Assembly: GCA_001281695.1 (NCBI GenBank)
Contig: LJIE01000001.1
Coordinates: 1,130,586 to 1,194,585, forward strand
Direction: 5' to 3'
Origin: a bacterium 336/3
Lineage (GTDB): Bacteria > Bacteroidota > Bacteroidia > Cytophagales > Thermonemataceae
DNA: 64,000 bases
Below the pieces are notes generated by a model. That model made no database searches and was not told where the DNA came from. It saw only the letters and a program-made list of their open reading frames with translations. Shown one piece after another: positions 47,050 to 55,496 of the stretch. The position numbers were made by a program, and so were the translations under genes. Numbering within the stretch: position 1 is the first letter of the stretch; every line of letters begins with the position of its first letter.

Positions 47050-47487
47050 ATGACACTCATTAGAAAAACAAACTCATTCTTTCCTGCTTTCTCTTCTATG
47101 TTTGAGGATTTCATGAATGATGAGAGAATTTTTAAAAATACAGGAGTTACTCAAGTACCTGCCGCAAACATCAAAGAAACTGAAGATGGTTTTGTAGTTG
47201 AGCTGGCTGCTCCTGGTAAACAAAAAGAAGATTTCAAGATAGAATTAAATCACAATGTATTGAGTGTTTCTTCTGAAAGTAAAATAGAACATGAAGAAAA
47301 AGATGAAAAAGGGCGTTATACTCGTAAAGAGTTTAATTATAGTTCTTTTCAAAGAAGTTTTGTGCTTCCTAGTAGTGTAGAAGCTGATAAAATCTCAGCT
47401 AATTACGAAAATGGAATTTTGAATATATCTATTCCAAAAAAGGAAGAAGTAAAGAAAAAGCCTGTTAGAAATATAGAGATAGTGTAG
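47050..47487 (+). CDS. Hsp20 / alpha-crystallin small heat-shock protein
   Basis: 145 residues. The alpha-crystallin domain spans about 38-130: PAANIKETEDGFVVELAAPG, FKIELNHNVLSVSSES, YSSFQRSFVLPSSVEADKI and NGILNISIPKKEE, with the conserved G-x-L near the end. A C-terminal I-x-I-type end (NIEIV) fits oligomer contacts. It is an ATP-independent chaperone that holds unfolding proteins in the cytosol. It is monocistronic, with its own terminator, next to the PspA/YbjN/GIDE-like genes. Confidence 0.95.
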   Translation: MTLIRKTNSFFPAFSSMFEDFMNDERIFKNTGVTQVPAANIKETEDGFVVELAAPGKQKEDFKIELNHNVLSVSSESKIEHEEKDEKGRYTRKEFNYSSFQRSFVLPSSVEADKISANYENGILNISIPKKEEVKKKPVRNIEIV

Positions 47488-47510
47488 TTTTTCACAGTTA
47501 ATATAATTTC

Positions 47511-47541
47511 AAAACCTCAAAAAATATTTTTTTGAGGTTTT
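47511..47541 (+). terminator. Terminator of the Hsp20 gene
   Basis: A stem AAAACCTCAAAAA / TTTTTGAGGTTTT (47511-47523 and 47529-47541) followed by more T, 23 bases after the stop codon. Confidence 0.8.
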
Positions 47542-47717
47542 TTCTTTAGGTATATCCAACTAATATTTTCATAAAAAAAAGATGCCATTTCGTAAAAAAT
47601 AACTCTGGAAAGATTTTTTTATAATTATTTTGCTTTCAGAAAAAAATATGCTAATATTGGCTATTGCCGATGCTTTTCGGTGTTAAAATATTTTTCAACT
47701 AAAAAACGCAAAATATT

Positions 47718-48380
47718 ATGGGAATCTTTGGAAGAATTGGAGATATCTTCAAAGCAAACATCAATGACCTGCTTGATAAAGCAGAAGATCCTGAAAAAAT
47801 GATAAAGCAGATGGTGTTAGAAATGCAAGAATCTATCACCAAAGCAACTTCGGGTTTAGCACAAGCAATGGCTCAAGAAAAAAAATTGCAAAGAGATTAT
47901 GAAAAATTTGTGGCAGCTTCAAGCGATTGGAAGAATAAAGCAGCACAAGCATTACAAGCAGGAAATGAGGACTTGGCTCGTAAGGCATTGGCTAAAAAGG
48001 CTGAAGCAGACCAACAAGTAACACAATATCAACAATTGTACGAAAATGCAGCAGCTACAGCTTCTACATTGAAACAACAAGTAGATAGCTTAAAGTTAAA
48101 ATTAGATGAAGCTAAGATGAAAGAGCAAACCTTGATTGCTCGTAATCAGGCTGCAAAAGCTCAAAAAGAGATTGCTAAACAAATCGGAGGTTTCGATTCT
48201 AACTCTTTTGCTAAATTTGACAAGTTTGAAGAGAAAATTTTGAAAGCAGAAGCAGAAGCAAATGCTTTTATGGAAATGTCTAATGATAAAACAAGCTTAG
48301 ATGATGAGTTTAAGGCTTTAGAGAAAAACTCTGCTGTAGATGATGAACTCGCTAAATTGAAAGCAGAACTTAACAAATAA
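47718..48380 (+). CDS. pspA: PspA/IM30 family envelope-stress protein
   Basis: 220 residues, the usual length. Opens MGIFGRIGDIFKANINDLLD, the amphipathic membrane-binding helix of PspA/Vipp1, followed by the helical hairpin with EDPEKMIKQMVLEMQE and long coiled coils rich in Ala/Gln/Lys. These proteins form ESCRT-III-like coats that protect or repair the inner membrane. No PspB/PspC/PspF gene is adjacent; instead a YbjN-like gene follows after 31 bases and a two-TM GIDE-like gene after that. The 230-base leader between Hsp20 and this gene shows no exact promoter consensus. Confidence 0.92.
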   Translation: MGIFGRIGDIFKANINDLLDKAEDPEKMIKQMVLEMQESITKATSGLAQAMAQEKKLQRDYEKFVAASSDWKNKAAQALQAGNEDLARKALAKKAEADQQVTQYQQLYENAAATASTLKQQVDSLKLKLDEAKMKEQTLIARNQAAKAQKEIAKQIGGFDSNSFAKFDKFEEKILKAEAEANAFMEMSNDKTSLDDEFKALEKNSAVDDELAKLKAELNK

Positions 48381-48411
48381 TCAAACTTTACACGTTTAAA
48401 CCCATAGACAT

Positions 48412-48855
48412 ATGCCCAAATTTAAAGTGATTAAAGAAGGTATTAATGAAGGTCTTCTCACTTCTACACAAGCGAAAGTAGAAAAATATATTCAAGAACT
48501 TTTCCACGATTATGAAGTTGCTAAAGTAGAAAATACTTACAGTTTCGCATTTGGAACAGTCAATGTAAATATCCGTATTATTGGTTGGCATACAGAGGAT
48601 GTACTGGTTGAAGTATATTCTTATCTAGCAGAAAATGTTGCTGTAGATGGTAAAACTGCTGAAGAATTGTTGCGTCTGAATGCAAGCATGCATTTTGGTA
48701 GCTTCGGTCTTACATTTGATAGAGCTGTAATTTATTCATACTCTTTGGCAGGTGCGAACTTAGACTTCAATGAGTTTATGGCTGCTGTGCAAACTGTAGC
48801 TACAGTAGCTGATAGCTATGATGAAATGTTTAAGCCAAGCCCTCAGCCTGCTTAG
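48412..48855 (+). CDS. YbjN-domain (T3SS-chaperone-like fold) protein
   Basis: 147 residues. The sequence LLTSTQAKVEKYIQELFHDY, then SFAFGTVNVNIRIIGWHTED, LVEVYSYLAENVAVDGKTAE and LLRLNASMHFGSFGLTFDRA follow the YbjN / type III chaperone-like pattern. Such proteins bind partner proteins. It lies 31 bases after pspA, so the two are very likely co-transcribed, and a terminator follows its stop. In Bacteroidota and other bacteria, comparable small chaperone-like proteins occur beside PspA; a role as PspA partner is an inference. Confidence 0.75.
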   Translation: MPKFKVIKEGINEGLLTSTQAKVEKYIQELFHDYEVAKVENTYSFAFGTVNVNIRIIGWHTEDVLVEVYSYLAENVAVDGKTAEELLRLNASMHFGSFGLTFDRAVIYSYSLAGANLDFNEFMAAVQTVATVADSYDEMFKPSPQPA

Positions 48856-48874
48856 TACCTACCCCACATATTAT

Positions 48875-48907
48875 AAGCAGATGGTAACCTTATCATCTGC
48901 TTTTTTT
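48875..48907 (+). terminator. Terminator after the pspA-YbjN pair
   Basis: A 9-bp stem AAGCAGATG / CATCTGCTT (48875-48883 and 48894-48902) with a 10-base loop and a T7 run, between the YbjN-like and GIDE-like genes. Confidence 0.82.
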
Positions 48908-48947
48908 ACAACTAAATATTCAATTTTCACTTAAAATAGATACACAA

Positions 48948-49769
48948 ATGGTATTTTTTATAATCGGAATTGTTTTAATTGGAGGAGGTGTTGGGCTTTG
49001 GTTTTATAGAAAAGGACAATTAGATAAGGCTCTAAACATTCGTTATCAAGAAACTACTACTGCTAAACTGATTTGGGAGAATTACGACCATATCAAAGAT
49101 GCCGTAGGAACAGGAAATTATACAGAAATTGTAGAAGTAAAAGGAATGGCTGTTGCTCAGAAACCCCTCATTGCTGACCATACAGAAAAACCTGTAGTGT
49201 ACTACAAAGCGACCATTCTAAGAGAATATGAAACTCAAGAGAAAGAAACAGATAGCAATGGTAACTCTCGTTGGGTTACACGCAGAAATACTGAAACAGT
49301 TTCTACCAATGAACATGCCATTCCATTTTATATAGATGATAACAGTGGTAAGCAAATAAGAGTAAATATGGAAGGGGCAAAGAAAATAACGCAAAAAAGT
49401 TTAGATAGATTTGAAAGAGAATTTTCTGATAATTATCTACAACAAAATAAAGATACTTCTTGGGGTGGCCAACTGATGAATTTTTTAGGAAGCTCTAATT
49501 TTGGTTCTTCCAATACTATTGGCTACAGATTGATAGAGGAATGTATTCCTATCAATGCTCAACTGTATGTGTATGGTGAGGCTTCTGATAGACAAGGGGA
49601 ATTAGCGATTTTAAAGCCCAAAGAAAAAGGGCAAAACTTTATAGTTTCTGTAAAATCTGAAGAAGAATTGGTTGAAGATACTCAAAGTGCAGCCAAATGG
49701 TCTTTGATAGGTGCGATTGCTTGTGTAGTTTTGGGTATTGGTTCTATTGTTTGGGGGATTCTGCAATAA
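48948..49769 (+). CDS. Two-TM protein with GIDE/BAM-type domain (E3-ligase-family N-terminal region, no RING)
   Basis: 273 residues. One TM helix at the N-terminus (about 2-20) and one at the C-terminus (about 248-270) flank a domain that matches the GIDE/BAM region of mitochondrial MUL1/MAPL: VEVKGMAVAQKPLIADHTEKPVVYYKATI and later RLIEECIPINAQLYVYGEAS, LAILKPKEKGQNFIVSVKSE. Eukaryotic relatives end in a RING finger; none is present here, so ubiquitin ligase activity is not implied. In prokaryotes the domain is found in membrane proteins, often near PspA-like genes. A terminator separates it from the YbjN-like gene, so it may be a separate transcript. Confidence 0.78.
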   Translation: MVFFIIGIVLIGGGVGLWFYRKGQLDKALNIRYQETTTAKLIWENYDHIKDAVGTGNYTEIVEVKGMAVAQKPLIADHTEKPVVYYKATILREYETQEKETDSNGNSRWVTRRNTETVSTNEHAIPFYIDDNSGKQIRVNMEGAKKITQKSLDRFEREFSDNYLQQNKDTSWGGQLMNFLGSSNFGSSNTIGYRLIEECIPINAQLYVYGEASDRQGELAILKPKEKGQNFIVSVKSEEELVEDTQSAAKWSLIGAIACVVLGIGSIVWGILQ

Positions 49770-50562: not shown

Positions 50563-53500
50563 CTATTTTAAAACCTCTATCCAACCATTGCATTTCACCC
50601 CTGAAGGAGAAATAATGAGATAATAATACAAGCCATTTACAACATCTTTTCCCCAATCGTTTTTGTAGTTGTCAGATTTGAACATTCTTTTACCCCATCT
50701 GTTCCATATTTCTACTTTAGAACCTACTTCTGCAATTTCAAAAGTATCATTGATGCCATCATTGTTGGGTGTAATGGCATTGGGTGGTTGAATAGGAGGG
50801 GCTGGTATGCTGACGGTTTTCTTCACAACTGTATTACAACCATTAGGATTGAGAGCTGTAAGCATAACAACATAATCTTTGTTGGGTTCTTTATAAATAT
50901 ACTCTTGAGGATGAGTACCTTCTAAAATAGTGCCATCACCCATATCCCAAGTGAATCGTACAAATTTGGCTGTATCCAAAGTTGTAGGCAAACTTAGTTG
51001 AACACGATAGGGGGTATTACAATCTTTAAGAAGTTTGAATGTAAAATCGGCAGTGAGTACAGGTAATACAATAACTTTTACTTTTTGATCTATTCTACAT
51101 TTATCATTAATAAATGTTACAGTATAATTAGTTGTTTGTGTTGGGGAAGCAATTGGATTGGCAATATTAGGATTACTCAAGCCTGTTGTGGGTGTCCATT
51201 GATACGAATTTGCTCCACTGGCTTGCAACTGTATGCTTTCACCTCTACAAATCTGTACACTATCATTTGTTTGAAAATTTGGAATAATGATATTGATATC
51301 TTGAATAGCTTGATCTGTTTGATTACAATTGGTTACACTCAATCTGATTTTATAATTTCCAGCAACAGTGAAGGTATAACTAAAGTCTTTTTGAGTATTT
51401 TGAGAAAAAATAACATTATTACCAGCATCTAAGATTTCCCAAAGAAAATCATCAGCATCCAAACCTGTAAATTTAAACAATAATCTTTTCTCGCAAGTTT
51501 CTGTACCTGAGTTGATTAATTGTAAATTTTTAGGGTTCAACATATCAAAGTCAGCACTAACATTGAGTTTAAATTTGAAAACGGCATTGTTGCAATTGCT
51601 ACTATTATTGGTTGCTGACCAAGCCCCTGCTGTTGTTGGGAAGCCATTGGTAGCTCCACAAGAAGCACAAGTAGAATGATAAATAATACCATTTTTTGCA
51701 AATCGACTGGTACCTCCATCTACATGGTCGCCTACTTCATTATTAGCATTTTCGCCGAAAAAAGTACCATATAAGAGTCTTTCCATATTGCGTTTATAAA
51801 CGGCAATGTAGAAATCGCTACCTGTAGCAGTAGTAGGTCTGTAAGCATCAGAAGTAGTAGGCATGTTGGTAATTCGACCACTACTTGTTCCACTCAAAGA
51901 ACCTTGATTGCTACCACCCCAGCCTGCAATATAAATATTGTTACAATTACTTTCAGTAACTACCAAAAAAGCTGTTGGAGAAATATCAGGATTGCCATCT
52001 CCTTGCCCAATGCGTGTACTCCAACGGCTTGTTGTTAAATCAGGGCTAATTTTATGAATAAACTGCCCACTATTGGGATTATTATATACACCAACTGAAA
52101 TAGGATAATTCCCAAATGTTTGCCCAAAAGCATAAACTTCTTGATCTGAGTCTAAATCAATAAAAAATGCCATATCAGCAGCACTGGTACCCAAATAAGT
52201 AGTAGAAATCAGCGTTCCTGTAGCATCAAATTTTGCTATAAAACCGTCATCATTACCCAAAGCAGTTGGATTGAGACTACCTGTTGTAGCAGGTAAATTG
52301 TTGCTATTAGTTCCCCCCCCCACAAAAACCTCATTGGCTGAGTTTGTTTGAATAGATAGAGCAATATCTAGACCATTTCCACCAAAGTATTGTCCCCATG
52401 TGATATTGAGTGTATTGTCCATTTTTATTACCAAACCATCGGATACACCAGTCAAGGTATTTGTTCCTGTAAGTACAGGTATTGTAGCAGAACGAGTGGT
52501 AGAAGCGATATAAACATTATCAAGAGCATCTACATATACATCTCCTCTCAATTCATCTCCATAATTATGAATAGTTGTTCCTCCAGAGGGTTTTAAGCCA
52601 TCATTTCCAGTTCCCCCAATCATACGAGAAGCGTTGAGTGTGCCATTTGCATTGAGTTTGGTTACAAAAATATCACTACCATTATCATACGAAATACCTA
52701 CCACAGTAGATAAAGTTCCTCCCTGAAAAGAACTACCTAATGTGGTTGGAAAATTGGTTGAACTAGTTGTTCCAAATATTAAAAGTCTGTTTTGGTTATC
52801 TACCACTAAACTATGTGGGATTTCAGAACTGCTACCACCAATAAAAGTTAGCTGTTGTAATGTAGTTCCTGTAGGGTTATACTTAAATATACCTACATCA
52901 GTAAGTCCACCAAAACCACTACTTGGCGAGCCTATAGTAGTAGCTCCTGTGAAATTGGGAAAATTTAACCCAAAAAGTGTAGAGCCAGAATATAAGTTTT
53001 CAGCAGCATCAAAGGTGGCAGTATTGCCCCAATTGTCTGATGAACCACCCGAATAAGTAGAAAAAACAAGTTCAGGGTCTATGATAAGTGGATGATTTTT
53101 GTTATAACCTTTTGGAAAAGAAAAACTTATGATGTTATTTTGAAGTACAAAATTGGTTTTGACTTCTACTTTTTTCTTGCCAATGATTTGATAGCTGACA
53201 GGTCTTTTCTCATAAATTTTGCCAACAGAAGTACTAATTTCGAGTGTGCCATCAGGCAAAATAGTTACTTGATCTGCATAATTATAATGCAGTTTTATCT
53301 GATTTGGATTAGCGTCTTTTTCGACTGTAATTTCGTATTTAAGAGATTTACCTTTTCTAAATAAATGATAGCTAATGCCTTGATATACATTTGGATAATA
53401 AATTTCTTCAAAGCCTTTTACATCACTTGCCCAATTACTTTTATCTCCTACATAATAATGATAATTTGTTGGGACTACTTTTTTTGATTGGACACTTACA

Positions 53501-53826
53501 GGGTTTGCTCCCAAAAATTCTACCACAAAACTATGAGCTTTTAAACCATTTTCTTTTTCATAAATGGCATATTCAGGATTATTTTTGTAAACGTCTTTAT
53601 GTTTCTGATAAGCCAAAGCCTTACCATCATAAAAACTATACTGAAGAGCATTGTTATAAACAAATAAAAAGCCTGAAGGTAAATCGGCTCGAAAACGGAT
53701 ATCTTTTTGCCATTGATTTTTGTTTTCAATAAACGAAATTCCTTGTGTTTGCGTTTGATTAGTATGTTGCCCAAAAACAAATAAACATACAAAAATAGAT
53801 ATAAAAGTAAATGTGAGTTTCAGCAT
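50563..53826 (-). CDS. Large T9SS type B protein with SBBP beta-propeller-like repeats and PKD domain
   Basis: 1087 residues with signal peptide MLKLTFTFISIFVCLFVFG. A conserved N-terminal domain of Bacteroidota SBBP proteins is clear (ISFIENKNQWQKDIRFRADL, NYHYYVGDKSNWASDVKGFE, YYPNVYQGISYHLFRKGKSL). SBBP-type propeller repeats follow at about 255-720, then Ig-like segments, a PKD domain near 925-1000 (FTWDMGDGTILEGTHPQEYI) and a gliding-motility-type C-terminal signal (NAITPNNDGINDTFEI, WNRWGKRMFKSDNYKNDWGK). V502-G505 is encoded by a run of nine G. Expected to be secreted by T9SS; the role is unknown. No PorP/SprF gene is adjacent. Confidence 0.9.
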   Translation of the reverse strand: MLKLTFTFISIFVCLFVFGQHTNQTQTQGISFIENKNQWQKDIRFRADLPSGFLFVYNNALQYSFYDGKALAYQKHKDVYKNNPEYAIYEKENGLKAHSFVVEFLGANPVSVQSKKVVPTNYHYYVGDKSNWASDVKGFEEIYYPNVYQGISYHLFRKGKSLKYEITVEKDANPNQIKLHYNYADQVTILPDGTLEISTSVGKIYEKRPVSYQIIGKKKVEVKTNFVLQNNIISFSFPKGYNKNHPLIIDPELVFSTYSGGSSDNWGNTATFDAAENLYSGSTLFGLNFPNFTGATTIGSPSSGFGGLTDVGIFKYNPTGTTLQQLTFIGGSSSEIPHSLVVDNQNRLLIFGTTSSTNFPTTLGSSFQGGTLSTVVGISYDNGSDIFVTKLNANGTLNASRMIGGTGNDGLKPSGGTTIHNYGDELRGDVYVDALDNVYIASTTRSATIPVLTGTNTLTGVSDGLVIKMDNTLNITWGQYFGGNGLDIALSIQTNSANEVFVGGGTNSNNLPATTGSLNPTALGNDDGFIAKFDATGTLISTTYLGTSAADMAFFIDLDSDQEVYAFGQTFGNYPISVGVYNNPNSGQFIHKISPDLTTSRWSTRIGQGDGNPDISPTAFLVVTESNCNNIYIAGWGGSNQGSLSGTSSGRITNMPTTSDAYRPTTATGSDFYIAVYKRNMERLLYGTFFGENANNEVGDHVDGGTSRFAKNGIIYHSTCASCGATNGFPTTAGAWSATNNSSNCNNAVFKFKLNVSADFDMLNPKNLQLINSGTETCEKRLLFKFTGLDADDFLWEILDAGNNVIFSQNTQKDFSYTFTVAGNYKIRLSVTNCNQTDQAIQDINIIIPNFQTNDSVQICRGESIQLQASGANSYQWTPTTGLSNPNIANPIASPTQTTNYTVTFINDKCRIDQKVKVIVLPVLTADFTFKLLKDCNTPYRVQLSLPTTLDTAKFVRFTWDMGDGTILEGTHPQEYIYKEPNKDYVVMLTALNPNGCNTVVKKTVSIPAPPIQPPNAITPNNDGINDTFEIAEVGSKVEIWNRWGKRMFKSDNYKNDWGKDVVNGLYYYLIISPSGVKCNGWIEVLK
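52313..52321 (-). repeat. Nine-base C/G homopolymer inside the 1087-residue T9SS gene
   Basis: C9 on the + strand, so G9 in the coding strand, covering the end of codon 502 through codon 505 (Val-Gly-Gly-Gly). Such a tract is rare by chance in a genome of this low GC and is a typical slipped-strand site. Confidence 0.9.
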
Positions 53827-53915: not shown

Positions 53916-55496
53916 ATGCAACGCATCAAAGGCATTCCTTTCTCTGAAACAAAAGCATTTTCTAAGATTTTTTTAGACTATATCACACAACAAGATTCTT
54001 TAAAAGAATTTTATCAATATTCACCTACCATAGAAAGTTTTGGAGAAATCTTGAAGAAAAAACAATTTTCAGATGCTCAAAGAAATAATTTGCAAATAGC
54101 TCTAAAAGAACAATATAAAAATCTTAAAATCTCTGAAAAAACGCAAAAAAATATAGAATTACTCCAAGATGCCAAAACATTTACGGTAGCGACTGCTCAT
54201 CAGCCTCTTATATTTTTTGGAGAGCTGTATTTTGTATATAAAATACTGACAACCATTAAATTGGCAAATAGCCTTAAGGAAAAGTTTCCTGAATATAATT
54301 TTGTACCTGTTTACTGGATGGGTTCTGAAGATCATGATTTTGCAGAAATAAGCCATTTTAGGCTTTTTGGTAAAAAATATCAATGGGAAACCACTCAAAA
54401 AGGAGCTGTGGGAAGAATGAATTTACAGGGAATAGAATCTCTTCTTCAAGAATTACCTGAAAAAATAGAGTTATTTGAAACTGCTTATACAAAGAATATA
54501 AGTCTTGCAAAGGCTACACAATGGGCTGTAAACGAATTATTTGGAGATAAAGGTATAGTTGTAATAGATGGGGATGATACAACACTAAAGAAAAATCTGA
54601 TACCAATTTTACAGAATGAATTAAGGACTCAAAAATCAGGACAAATTGTTCAAGAAGTATCTGGAAAATTAGAAAATTTAGGTTATAAAGCACAAGTAAA
54701 TCCAAGAAATATCAATTTATTTTACTTGGATGAAGATTTAAGAGAACGAATAGAGTTTGTTGATGGTAAATATCATGTAGTAAATACAGATTTATATTTT
54801 TCAGAACACGACATTCTACAAATAGCAGAAGAAACACCTGAAATGTTTAGTCCCAATGCTGTACTCAGACCTGTTTATCAGGAACTTAGTATTCCAAACT
54901 TGGGTTATGTTGGTGGACCTGGCGAAATAGCTTATTGGTTGCAACTCAAAAATGTTTTCAAATATTTTGAAACACAAGGTGCTGATAATCTGCAATATCC
55001 TATCTTGTTTTCTCGTACATTTGCTTTGATGGTACAAGGAAATCAGCAACAAAAAATAGAAAAATTGGGCTTAACCATTGAAGATTTATTTTTAGATGAA
55101 ATAAGCTTAAAAAAATATTTTGTGGAAAAAAACTCAACCAACGATTTTCACTTGAATCAAGAAATGGAAGAGTTTAAAGAGGTATTCAAAAAAATTCAGC
55201 AAAAAGCTCAACAAATAGACAAATCGTTGGAAGGAGCAATAGCTGCTGAAGAGCAAAAAACGCTTAAATCTTTAGATAATTTAGAAAAAAGACTTCAAAA
55301 AGCAGAAGAACGCAATCAGGAAACACAAGTTACACAAGTTTTGGGTATAAAAGAGAAATTATTTCCTAATGGGGCATTGCAAGAGCGAACAGATAATTTT
55401 TTAAACTTTTATCTCAACGACTCTCAATGGCTTGATAATGTGTATCATTTGATAAATCCTTGGGATTTTAATTTTCAAGTTATAGGGCTTTTTTAA
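53916..55496 (+). CDS. bshC: Bacillithiol biosynthesis protein BshC (cysteine-adding enzyme)
   Basis: 526 residues, close to the usual size. It is proposed to attach cysteine to glucosaminyl-malate in the last step of bacillithiol synthesis. Marks are MQRIKGIPFSETKAFSKIFL, TAHQPLIFFGELYFVYKI, PVYWMGSEDHDFAEI, PNAVLRPVYQELSIPNLGYV, GGPGEIAYWLQLKNVF and a coiled-coil region from about 400 to 475 before the C-terminal LDNVYHLINPWDFNFQVI. bshA and bshB are not in this window. The gene stands alone, divergent from the T9SS gene. Confidence 0.95.
   Translation: MQRIKGIPFSETKAFSKIFLDYITQQDSLKEFYQYSPTIESFGEILKKKQFSDAQRNNLQIALKEQYKNLKISEKTQKNIELLQDAKTFTVATAHQPLIFFGELYFVYKILTTIKLANSLKEKFPEYNFVPVYWMGSEDHDFAEISHFRLFGKKYQWETTQKGAVGRMNLQGIESLLQELPEKIELFETAYTKNISLAKATQWAVNELFGDKGIVVIDGDDTTLKKNLIPILQNELRTQKSGQIVQEVSGKLENLGYKAQVNPRNINLFYLDEDLRERIEFVDGKYHVVNTDLYFSEHDILQIAEETPEMFSPNAVLRPVYQELSIPNLGYVGGPGEIAYWLQLKNVFKYFETQGADNLQYPILFSRTFALMVQGNQQQKIEKLGLTIEDLFLDEISLKKYFVEKNSTNDFHLNQEMEEFKEVFKKIQQKAQQIDKSLEGAIAAEEQKTLKSLDNLEKRLQKAEERNQETQVTQVLGIKEKLFPNGALQERTDNFLNFYLNDSQWLDNVYHLINPWDFNFQVIGLF

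What the first reader, a model, noticed from the sequence alone, without database searches (positions are those of the whole stretch)
47050..49769. Envelope-stress neighbourhood: Hsp20, PspA, YbjN-like protein and RING-less GIDE protein
Seen: Hsp20, then PspA/IM30 with a YbjN-domain gene 31 bases behind, then a terminator and a two-TM protein with the GIDE/BAM domain of mitochondrial MUL1, without a RING. There is no PspB, PspC or PspF. Known: PspA coats and repairs membranes, and YbjN-like folds act as protein-binding chaperones. Inference: the YbjN-like protein regulates PspA in place of PspB/C, and the GIDE protein is a membrane anchor or sensor. Combining these into a working Bacteroidota phage-shock analogue would be new in detail.
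Basis: partly seen in the sequence, partly recalled or inferred. Interest (0 to 1): 0.66.

Follow-up and report, generated by a model that had tools for sequence, protein, structure and literature searches.

The report
PspA, chaperone and GIDE membrane operon
A small bacterial gene cluster pairs the membrane-repair protein PspA with a predicted chaperone and a membrane protein related to the core domain of the mitochondrial protein MUL1, and the same three genes sit together in some distantly related bacteria, so they probably work as one membrane-stress system.

Summary
PspA (47718-48380), a YbjN/TY-Chap1 protein (48412-48855) and a RING-less two-TM GIDE protein (48948-49769) are there and above Pfam cut-offs. 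Their grouping is not chance. GIDE-anchored searches found TY-Chap1 next door in 21 of 24 matches in the window's order, 20 with PspA too, and both genes beside 10 of 10 matches in a Synergistota sample (2 of the 10 come from the centre genome, itself reached through a TY-Chap1 locus). In 25 named loci no other gene family recurs in more than 4. Against this, the 5 other GIDE matches in a 394-genome phylum sample are not beside the pair. Hsp20 is a chance neighbour. The CesT/Tir-PspA dyad is published (PMC11237479; PMC10948618), and RING-less GIDE is normal in bacteria (PMC4457424); GIDE as third partner was not found in the text I could search. Best reading: a variant phage-shock module in which TY-Chap1 binds PspA and GIDE anchors it at the inner membrane. 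Contact, function and GIDE topology are inferred. 'In place of PspB/C' is weakened: the genome has a PadR-PspC-Toastrack pair elsewhere.

The parts
47718..48380 (+). pspA: PspA/IM30 (ESCRT-III-like), 220 aa
   Evidence: matches solved PspA/Vipp1 chains, e.g. 8qbw E 1e-50 over profile 1-219. That Vipp1 carries an extra C-terminal stretch is recalled
48412..48855 (+). TY-Chap1 / YbjN-like chaperone, 147 aa, with an MPKF-type N-terminal tail and a conserved WH..DVLV hairpin
   Evidence: AF2 pLDDT 86, helix - strands - helix - two strands - helix; fold matches 2plg Z 14.4, ExsC 3kxy Z 13.7, BacA 8q8o Z 12.1, YbjN 6vu7 Z 11.8
48875..48902 (+). intrinsic-terminator-like hairpin between TY-Chap1 and GIDE (12 pairs, T-run)
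   Evidence: hairpins of other sequence in the same gap in the three Raineya-type relatives, read by eye
48948..49769 (+). GIDE/BAM-domain membrane protein, 273 aa, no RING
   Evidence: AF2 pLDDT 88.7
48951..49007 (+). GIDE transmembrane segment 1 (about residues 2-20), followed by a K/R-rich stretch
49704..49760 (+). GIDE transmembrane segment 2 (about residues 253-271)
47629..47659 (+). candidate pspA promoter region with TTTG and CTAATATT
   Evidence: CTAATATT identical in 4 of 4 aligned upstream regions; resemblance to the Bacteroidetes promoter consensus is recalled, not tested

Best explanation
A three-gene phage-shock variant, PspA - TY-Chap1 - GIDE. SHOWN: gene order, same strand, tight spacing in most triads, recurrence in Bacteroidota, one Ignavibacteriales locus (one gene between) and Synergistota, the chaperone fold of TY-Chap1 (predicted model), and two terminal hydrophobic segments in GIDE. 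INFERRED: (1) PspA is the ESCRT-III-like effector that coats and remodels the inner membrane. (2) TY-Chap1, a cytoplasmic type-III-chaperone-like protein, binds PspA and keeps it soluble or sets its assembly, as BacA may do for the PspA homologue BacB. (3) GIDE, held by two membrane helices with its beta-rich domain most likely on the cytoplasmic face, is the membrane anchor or docking site that takes PspA (directly or through TY-Chap1) to damaged membrane, the job of YdjG/YdjH in Bacillus subtilis. (4) In Raineya-type genomes the terminator before GIDE lowers GIDE relative to PspA, as the terminator between pspA and ydjG is said to do in B. subtilis.
For: Linkage: among 59 relatives 11 have GIDE and 10 of the 11 carry it in a PspA-TY-Chap1-GIDE row. 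From GIDE alone: window's order, 24 matches in 22 of 208 genomes, 21 with TY-Chap1 beside them, 20 with PspA as well; Synergistota, 10 matches in 8 of 110 genomes, 10 of 10 behind PspA-TY-Chap1, or 8 of 8 in 7 genomes without the centre genome. From TY-Chap1 in named genomes: 25 loci, PspA in 23 (the other 2 begin inside the TY-Chap1 gene at a contig edge), GIDE in 22; the next commonest neighbour family is in 4. In a 394-genome phylum sample 30 of 33 close PspA genes (E 1e-70 or better, the window's included) have TY-Chap1 directly behind; of 37 TY-Chap1-profile matches 36 adjoin PspA, the miss being G123:C153. The gap to GIDE is 33 nt or less in 25 of 34 triad rows. Fold of TY-Chap1, including BacA (8q8o), for which a strong BacA-BacB interaction is mentioned as unpublished (PMC10948618, passages). 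More K/R on the domain side in 33 of 33 GIDE proteins, mean 7.5 against 0.5. B. subtilis YdjG/YdjH are needed for PspA membrane recruitment and a terminator sits between pspA and ydjG (PMC8581546, passages).
Against: No interaction was predicted or measured; complexes could not be modelled. Linkage is lineage-bound: in the phylum sample GIDE is in 6 of 394 genomes and only the window's own copy is in a triad; G187 (strong, 1e-82), G436, G310, G097 and G143 (weak) have it away from PspA/TY-Chap1; (4 of 296 genomes, overlapping sample) shows the same. G023 also has it apart. GIDE is dispensable for the dyad: no GIDE match in the genomes G011 and G015, Rhodocytophaga or WOR-3, and none within 1.5 kb in 29 of 29 remote-phylum loci (L068-L096). 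The cytoplasmic side for the GIDE domain is opposite to MAPL, whose BAM domain is in the intermembrane space (PMC4457424), and the terminal tails are too short (0-9 residues) to make the charge rule strong. The terminator in the window argues against one full transcript there. Parallel divergence (r 0.73-0.83 within phyla) has no control gene.
Confidence: 0.5

Rival explanations
1. Shared regulon without contact: the three genes are kept together only because one envelope-stress signal induces them, and each acts on its own.
For: In the window a terminator separates GIDE from the first two genes; GIDE occurs away from the pair in G023, G187, G436, G310, G097 and G143 and the pair occurs without GIDE.
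Against: Fixed order in different phyla with no other widely recurrent neighbour, and near-zero or overlapping gaps, favour co-translation of partners; a related chaperone-PspA pair is said to interact.
Confidence: 0.25
2. GIDE is an outward-facing sensor: its domain lies in the periplasm as MAPL's lies in the intermembrane space, and it passes a signal through its helices, while TY-Chap1 acts as a regulator of gene expression or of other proteins (as proposed for YbjN, AmyR, DR1245).
For: MAPL topology (PMC4457424, passages); YbjN-family members linked to stress regulation (PMC10948618, passages).
Against: Charge pattern puts the domain inside in 33 of 33 proteins; no DNA-binding-domain family matched TY-Chap1; a cytoplasmic PspA partner needs a cytoplasmic surface.
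Confidence: 0.15
3. [quoted passage not shown]
For: Proposal of PMC11237479 (passages); LemA takes the third place in a WOR-3 genome and adjoins GIDE in G310.
Against: No client gene is conserved beside the module.
Confidence: 0.2
4. Chance neighbourhood.
For: Fits Hsp20, found upstream of pspA only in the window's genome.
Against: 21 of 24 and 10 of 10 in GIDE-anchored searches.
Confidence: 0.01

Closest known systems
CesT/Tir-PspA dyad operons (Ravi et al. 2024, PMC11237479)
   Same: PspA encoded beside a type-III-chaperone-like protein; a chaperone-like role with PspA is already proposed there.
   Different: The larger operons described in the passages I read add band-7/flotillin, AAA+, YqiJ/YuaF or polyamine genes. 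Here PspA comes first and the third gene is GIDE. 'GIDE', 'ubiquitin', 'MUL1', 'LemA' and 'Synergist' do not occur in that paper's main text; its supplements could not be opened.
Pseudomonas aeruginosa bac cluster, BacA (8q8o) and BacB (PspA homologue) (PMC10948618)
   Same: Chaperone-fold protein next to a PspA homologue; fold match Z 12.1, rmsd 2.9, 123 aligned; strong BacA-BacB interaction mentioned as unpublished.
   Different: BacA is of the DUF2170/YjfI family; the passages I read name no GIDE gene.
Bacillus subtilis pspA-ydjGHI (PMC8581546, passages)
   Same: PspA with membrane proteins YdjG/YdjH that it needs for membrane recruitment, in one operon, and a terminator between pspA and ydjG.
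   Different: Other partner proteins; an SPFH protein (YdjI) takes the place that TY-Chap1 may have here.
MAPL/MUL1 and prokaryotic BAM/GIDE proteins (PMC4457424, passages)
   Same: GIDE/BAM domain between two transmembrane segments.
   Different: No RING here (normal for prokaryotes); predicted domain on the cytoplasmic side; no ligase activity expected.
E. coli PspF-PspABC system
   Same: PspA effector.
   Different: No PspB, PspC or PspF match in the 7 ORFs scanned; a PadR-PspC-Toastrack pair lies elsewhere in the genome.

Membership tests
PspA/IM30 (ESCRT-III superfamily) | Full-length PspA_IM30 domain | tested here: met
   PF04012 183.1 bits against cut-off 33.9, profile 1-219 of 220; 8qbw E 1e-50
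PspA/IM30 (ESCRT-III superfamily) | Membrane binding and oligomeric rods or rings | not testable with these tools
   Needs biochemistry or microscopy
Canonical proteobacterial Psp system | pspB, pspC and pspF beside pspA | tested here: not met
   None among 7 ORFs scanned by Pfam around the locus; PspC is encoded elsewhere
TY-Chap1 / YbjN / CesT superfamily | Sequence profile above curated cut-off | tested here: met
   PF22551 50.6 bits (cut-off 27), PF22550 33.7 (27), PF10722 29.5 (22)
TY-Chap1 / YbjN / CesT superfamily | Type III chaperone fold (order alpha-beta3-alpha-beta2-alpha) | tested here: met
   AF2 model pLDDT 86, that order with one extra short strand; 2plg Z 14.4, 3kxy Z 13.7, 8q8o Z 12.1
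CesT/Tir-PspA dyad operon | Chaperone gene directly adjacent to pspA | tested here: met
   31 nt gap; 36 of 37 profile matches adjacent in 394 genomes
CesT/Tir-PspA dyad operon | Chaperone of the CesT_Tir_1 or DUF2170 type (types named or inferred for the published operons) | tested here: inconclusive
   TY-Chap1 scores best (50.6) but CesT_Tir_1 also passes its cut-off (33.7 against 27). Of 6 relatives scanned 5 fit TY-Chap1 best and 1 (L145) CesT_Tir_1. PspA is first in 30 of 30 close pairs, the chaperone in 5 of 6 remote ones; the two chaperone-first genes scanned, in G187 and G023, are CesT_Tir_1
GIDE/BAM family | GIDE domain between two membrane segments | tested here: met
   PF12483 113.4 bits (cut-off 23.6); terminal hydrophobic segments
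GIDE/BAM family | Domain on the outer side of the membrane, as in MAPL | tested here: inconclusive
   Charge rule says cytoplasmic in 33 of 33; not measured
E3 ubiquitin/SUMO ligase (MUL1-type) | C-terminal RING finger | tested here: not met
   No RING match; the protein ends after the second membrane segment

The most novel reading that the evidence does not exclude
The bacterial GIDE/BAM domain is the membrane receptor of an ESCRT-III-like PspA held by a type-III-chaperone-like protein. If so, the unexplained BAM domain of MAPL/MUL1 may belong to a family whose bacterial job includes recruiting membrane-remodelling machinery, in line with MAPL's role in mitochondrial division and vesicles. 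(Odds lowered from 0.3 to 0.25 on recheck, because 5 of 6 GIDE matches in the phylum sample lie away from PspA.)
Probability: 0.25. Interest if true: 0.8.

Novelty: new variant of a known kind. Interest (0 to 1): 0.55.

Why it matters
[quoted passage not shown] A cluster in separate phyla that ties this domain to PspA, whose activity can be measured in vitro, makes the question testable in bacteria. It also gives PspA a candidate soluble partner and a candidate membrane partner in lineages that lack the canonical ones beside pspA.

Tried and rejected
Hsp20 as part of the module: rejected, found upstream of pspA only in the window's genome within the flanks held.

GIDE fold by structure comparison: Foldseek gave no PDB match at E 0.001 or better. 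The second look listed OB-fold domains (LysRS, RPA, Teb1) at Z about 6-8 over residues about 34-236, and rows up to Z 9.1 spanning 1-273 with only about 60-70 residues aligned. These are near the level the tool calls common, so I claim only 'beta-rich, possibly OB-like'. A profile search of PDB sequences gave no credible hit.

Phage or plasmid origin: no relative of GIDE in viral contigs or plasmids; no PADLOC match for the three proteins; one weak PHROGs match for GIDE (0.0043), not pursued.

Regulator: no gene family beyond the three recurs in more than 4 of 25 loci. The promoter candidate rests on four sequences and a recalled consensus.

Parallel divergence: r 0.73-0.93 over 28 loci, no control gene, so not used as proof. 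A quick PspA tree (41 rows) puts the Synergistota PspA in one clade and the remote dyad-only ones in another, but 14 of 37 inner branches are weak; it does not tell descent from transfer of the block.

Rows dropped and dependence: duplicates, proteins under 240 aa and GIDE hits weaker than 1e-40 were left out. The 25 named loci are not independent: L143 and L148 lie on one contig, and L143 and L144 are nearly identical. L142's GIDE is split over two frames and was counted as present; L145's lies one gene further on and was counted. L211 (fragment at a contig edge) and L212 (E 1.4e-6) count as misses. The TY-Chap1 scan of named genomes used two peptide patterns, so it favours close relatives. 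The order, relatives and named-locus searches share genomes. Two of the ten Synergistota matches are in the centre genome G443, which was reached through a TY-Chap1 locus.

Literature: 'not found in print' rests on searches and on word finds in PMC11237479. Papers were seen as passages only; no supplement was read, and the library lacks most subscription journals.
Full report
WHERE. The window lies in a 4.7 Mb genome. A same-genus relative, G002, has the contig of Raineya orbicola: G002:C20 and L127 agree in contig length and position. It is therefore a Cytophagales (Bacteroidota) genome close to Raineya.

OBSERVATION. The gap between pspA and the YbjN-like gene is 31 nt, and a hairpin followed by a T-run separates that gene from GIDE. 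GIDE has a hydrophobic segment at each end and no RING match.

IS THE GROUPING REAL? The test was run from each of the three genes. (a) Relatives: of 59 genomes, 31 have a PspA match, 18 a YbjN-like match and 11 a GIDE match. Ten of the 11 GIDE genes stand in the order PspA, YbjN-like, GIDE on one strand; the exception is G023. G011 and G015 have only the first two. (b) From the YbjN-like gene in named genomes: 25 loci. PspA is in 23, the other two being cut by a contig edge inside the YbjN-like gene. GIDE is in 22, missing from Rhodocytophaga (L133), WOR-3 (L147) and L150. The next commonest neighbour family is in 4 loci. The loci include Cytophagales, Flavobacteriales, one Ignavibacteriales and Synergistaceae. 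(c) From GIDE in the window's order: 24 matches in 22 of 208 genomes; 21 have the YbjN-like gene beside them and 20 have PspA as well. The misses are L201 (solitary), L211 (fragment) and L212 (weak). (d) From GIDE in Synergistota: 10 matches in 8 of 110 genomes, 10 of 10 behind PspA and the YbjN-like gene. Two of these are in the centre genome, itself reached through a YbjN-like locus; without it, 8 of 8 in 7 genomes. (e) Phylum sample of 394: GIDE is in 6 genomes, and only the window's own copy is in a triad. G187 (strong), G436, G310, G097 and G143 (weak) have it elsewhere than PspA and the YbjN-like gene. A second, overlapping sample with the Pfam model gave 4 of 296 genomes, again with only the window's in a triad. 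So the triad belongs to certain lineages, not to GIDE as a whole. (f) The pair is wider: in the same sample 30 of 33 close PspA genes have the YbjN-like gene directly behind. Of 37 YbjN-profile matches 36 adjoin a PspA match (31 of 31 strong, 5 of 6 weak). Of 31 remote PspA matches 6 adjoin a YbjN-like gene, 5 of them with the chaperone gene first. Hsp20 does not recur.

Spacing supports one transcript in most triads. PspA and YbjN-like genes overlap in 12 of 13 Synergistota rows by the starts chosen, and the gap to GIDE is 33 nt or less in 25 of 34 rows (some genomes twice). The window and its three Raineya-type relatives instead have 78-92 nt with a hairpin. L136, L138, L169 and L176 also have longer gaps, and L145 has one gene in between (the L176 value depends on start choice). 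The hairpin sequences differ between the window and the relatives, so the hairpin seems kept rather than merely inherited (by eye).

WHAT THE PARTS ARE. PspA matches solved PspA and Vipp1 chains over about 217 residues. The YbjN-like protein matches TY-Chap1 best and CesT_Tir_1 next. Its AF2 model has the helix-strand order of class I type III secretion chaperones plus one short strand and matches 2plg, ExsC, BacA (8q8o), YbjN and CesT. Its first 10 residues are poorly ordered in the model (mean pLDDT 54), yet most relatives keep the MPKF-type start, which makes them a candidate binding tail (inference). GIDE has helices at both ends around a beta-rich domain. In 33 of 33 proteins more lysines and arginines lie on the domain side of the membrane segments, mean 7.5 against 0.5. 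By the positive-inside rule this puts the domain in the cytoplasm, where PspA and TY-Chap1 are expected; the very short tails limit the strength of this.

HOW IT PROBABLY WORKS (inference). TY-Chap1 holds PspA; GIDE is the membrane anchor or docking site; stress releases or directs PspA to the membrane. Two precedents guide this. The P. aeruginosa chaperone-fold protein BacA lies in one cluster with a PspA homologue, and a strong interaction is mentioned as unpublished (PMC10948618, passages). In B. subtilis, YdjG and YdjH are needed for PspA to reach the membrane, and a terminator lies between pspA and ydjG (PMC8581546, passages).

The genome does carry PspC: a PspC-Toastrack protein with a PadR-like gene beside it, and a second weaker match. 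So the YbjN-like protein need not replace PspC in the cell. A second, 370-aa protein with a partial PspA_IM30 match also exists. GIDE is not obligatory: the pair stands without it within 1.5 kb in 29 of 29 remote-phylum loci, often near recR (cluster in 16 of 32 loci, one genome twice; one member of the cluster confirmed by Pfam).

A WIDER NETWORK. In WOR-3 the third place after PspA and TY-Chap1 is taken by LemA, and in G310 GIDE is followed by LemA; G097 looks the same by position and start sequence only. LemA and GIDE may therefore be alternative or joint partners (inference from three loci). The window's genome has one LemA match, far from the module.

NOVELTY. A chaperone-PspA pair is published (PMC11237479, passages). 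GIDE without RING is normal in prokaryotes (PMC4457424, passages). TY-Chap1 was named in another context, ADP-ribose systems (PMC9503650, passages). I found no text that joins GIDE to PspA (searches; finds); supplements were not readable. I call it a new variant of a known kind.

Noticed in passing
L184:1362-2471 (G000:C1, about 95 kb downstream of the window's pspA): A second protein (370 aa) with a partial PspA_IM30 match (4.1e-12); second matches also in same-genus genomes G001 and G002.
   Followed up: partly
L182 (G000:C1:538923 region): PadR-like gene next to a large PspC-Toastrack protein in the same genome, a separate envelope-stress system.
   Followed up: partly
L147:6446-7039: A WOR-3 genome has LemA directly behind PspA and TY-Chap1, where other lineages have GIDE.
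   Followed up: partly
L188:2236-3739 (G310) and L065 (G097): A divergent GIDE gene followed by LemA, about 10 nt between the genes (Pfam-tested in G310 only).
   Followed up: partly
L068-L096: In remote members of the phylum the PspA-TY-Chap1 pair stands without GIDE, often beside recR and sometimes ybaB.
   Followed up: partly
L186 (G187:C29): A GIDE gene very like the triad ones (1e-82) lies on another contig than that genome's chaperone-first PspA pair.
   Followed up: partly
L139:4010-5701: Two GIDE genes in a row behind PspA and TY-Chap1; the second is cut by the contig end.
   Followed up: no
L143 and L148: Two complete triads about 10.7 kb apart on one Synergistaceae contig.
   Followed up: no
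L145:6493-7917: A 475-aa protein without Pfam match lies between TY-Chap1 and GIDE in an Ignavibacteriales genome; a LysM protein follows GIDE.
   Followed up: no
window:36050-42250, 50563-53826, 53916-55496: Alpha-2-macroglobulin, a DUF7948/PKD protein with a type IX secretion signal, and BshC (bacillithiol synthesis) lie around the locus.
   Followed up: no
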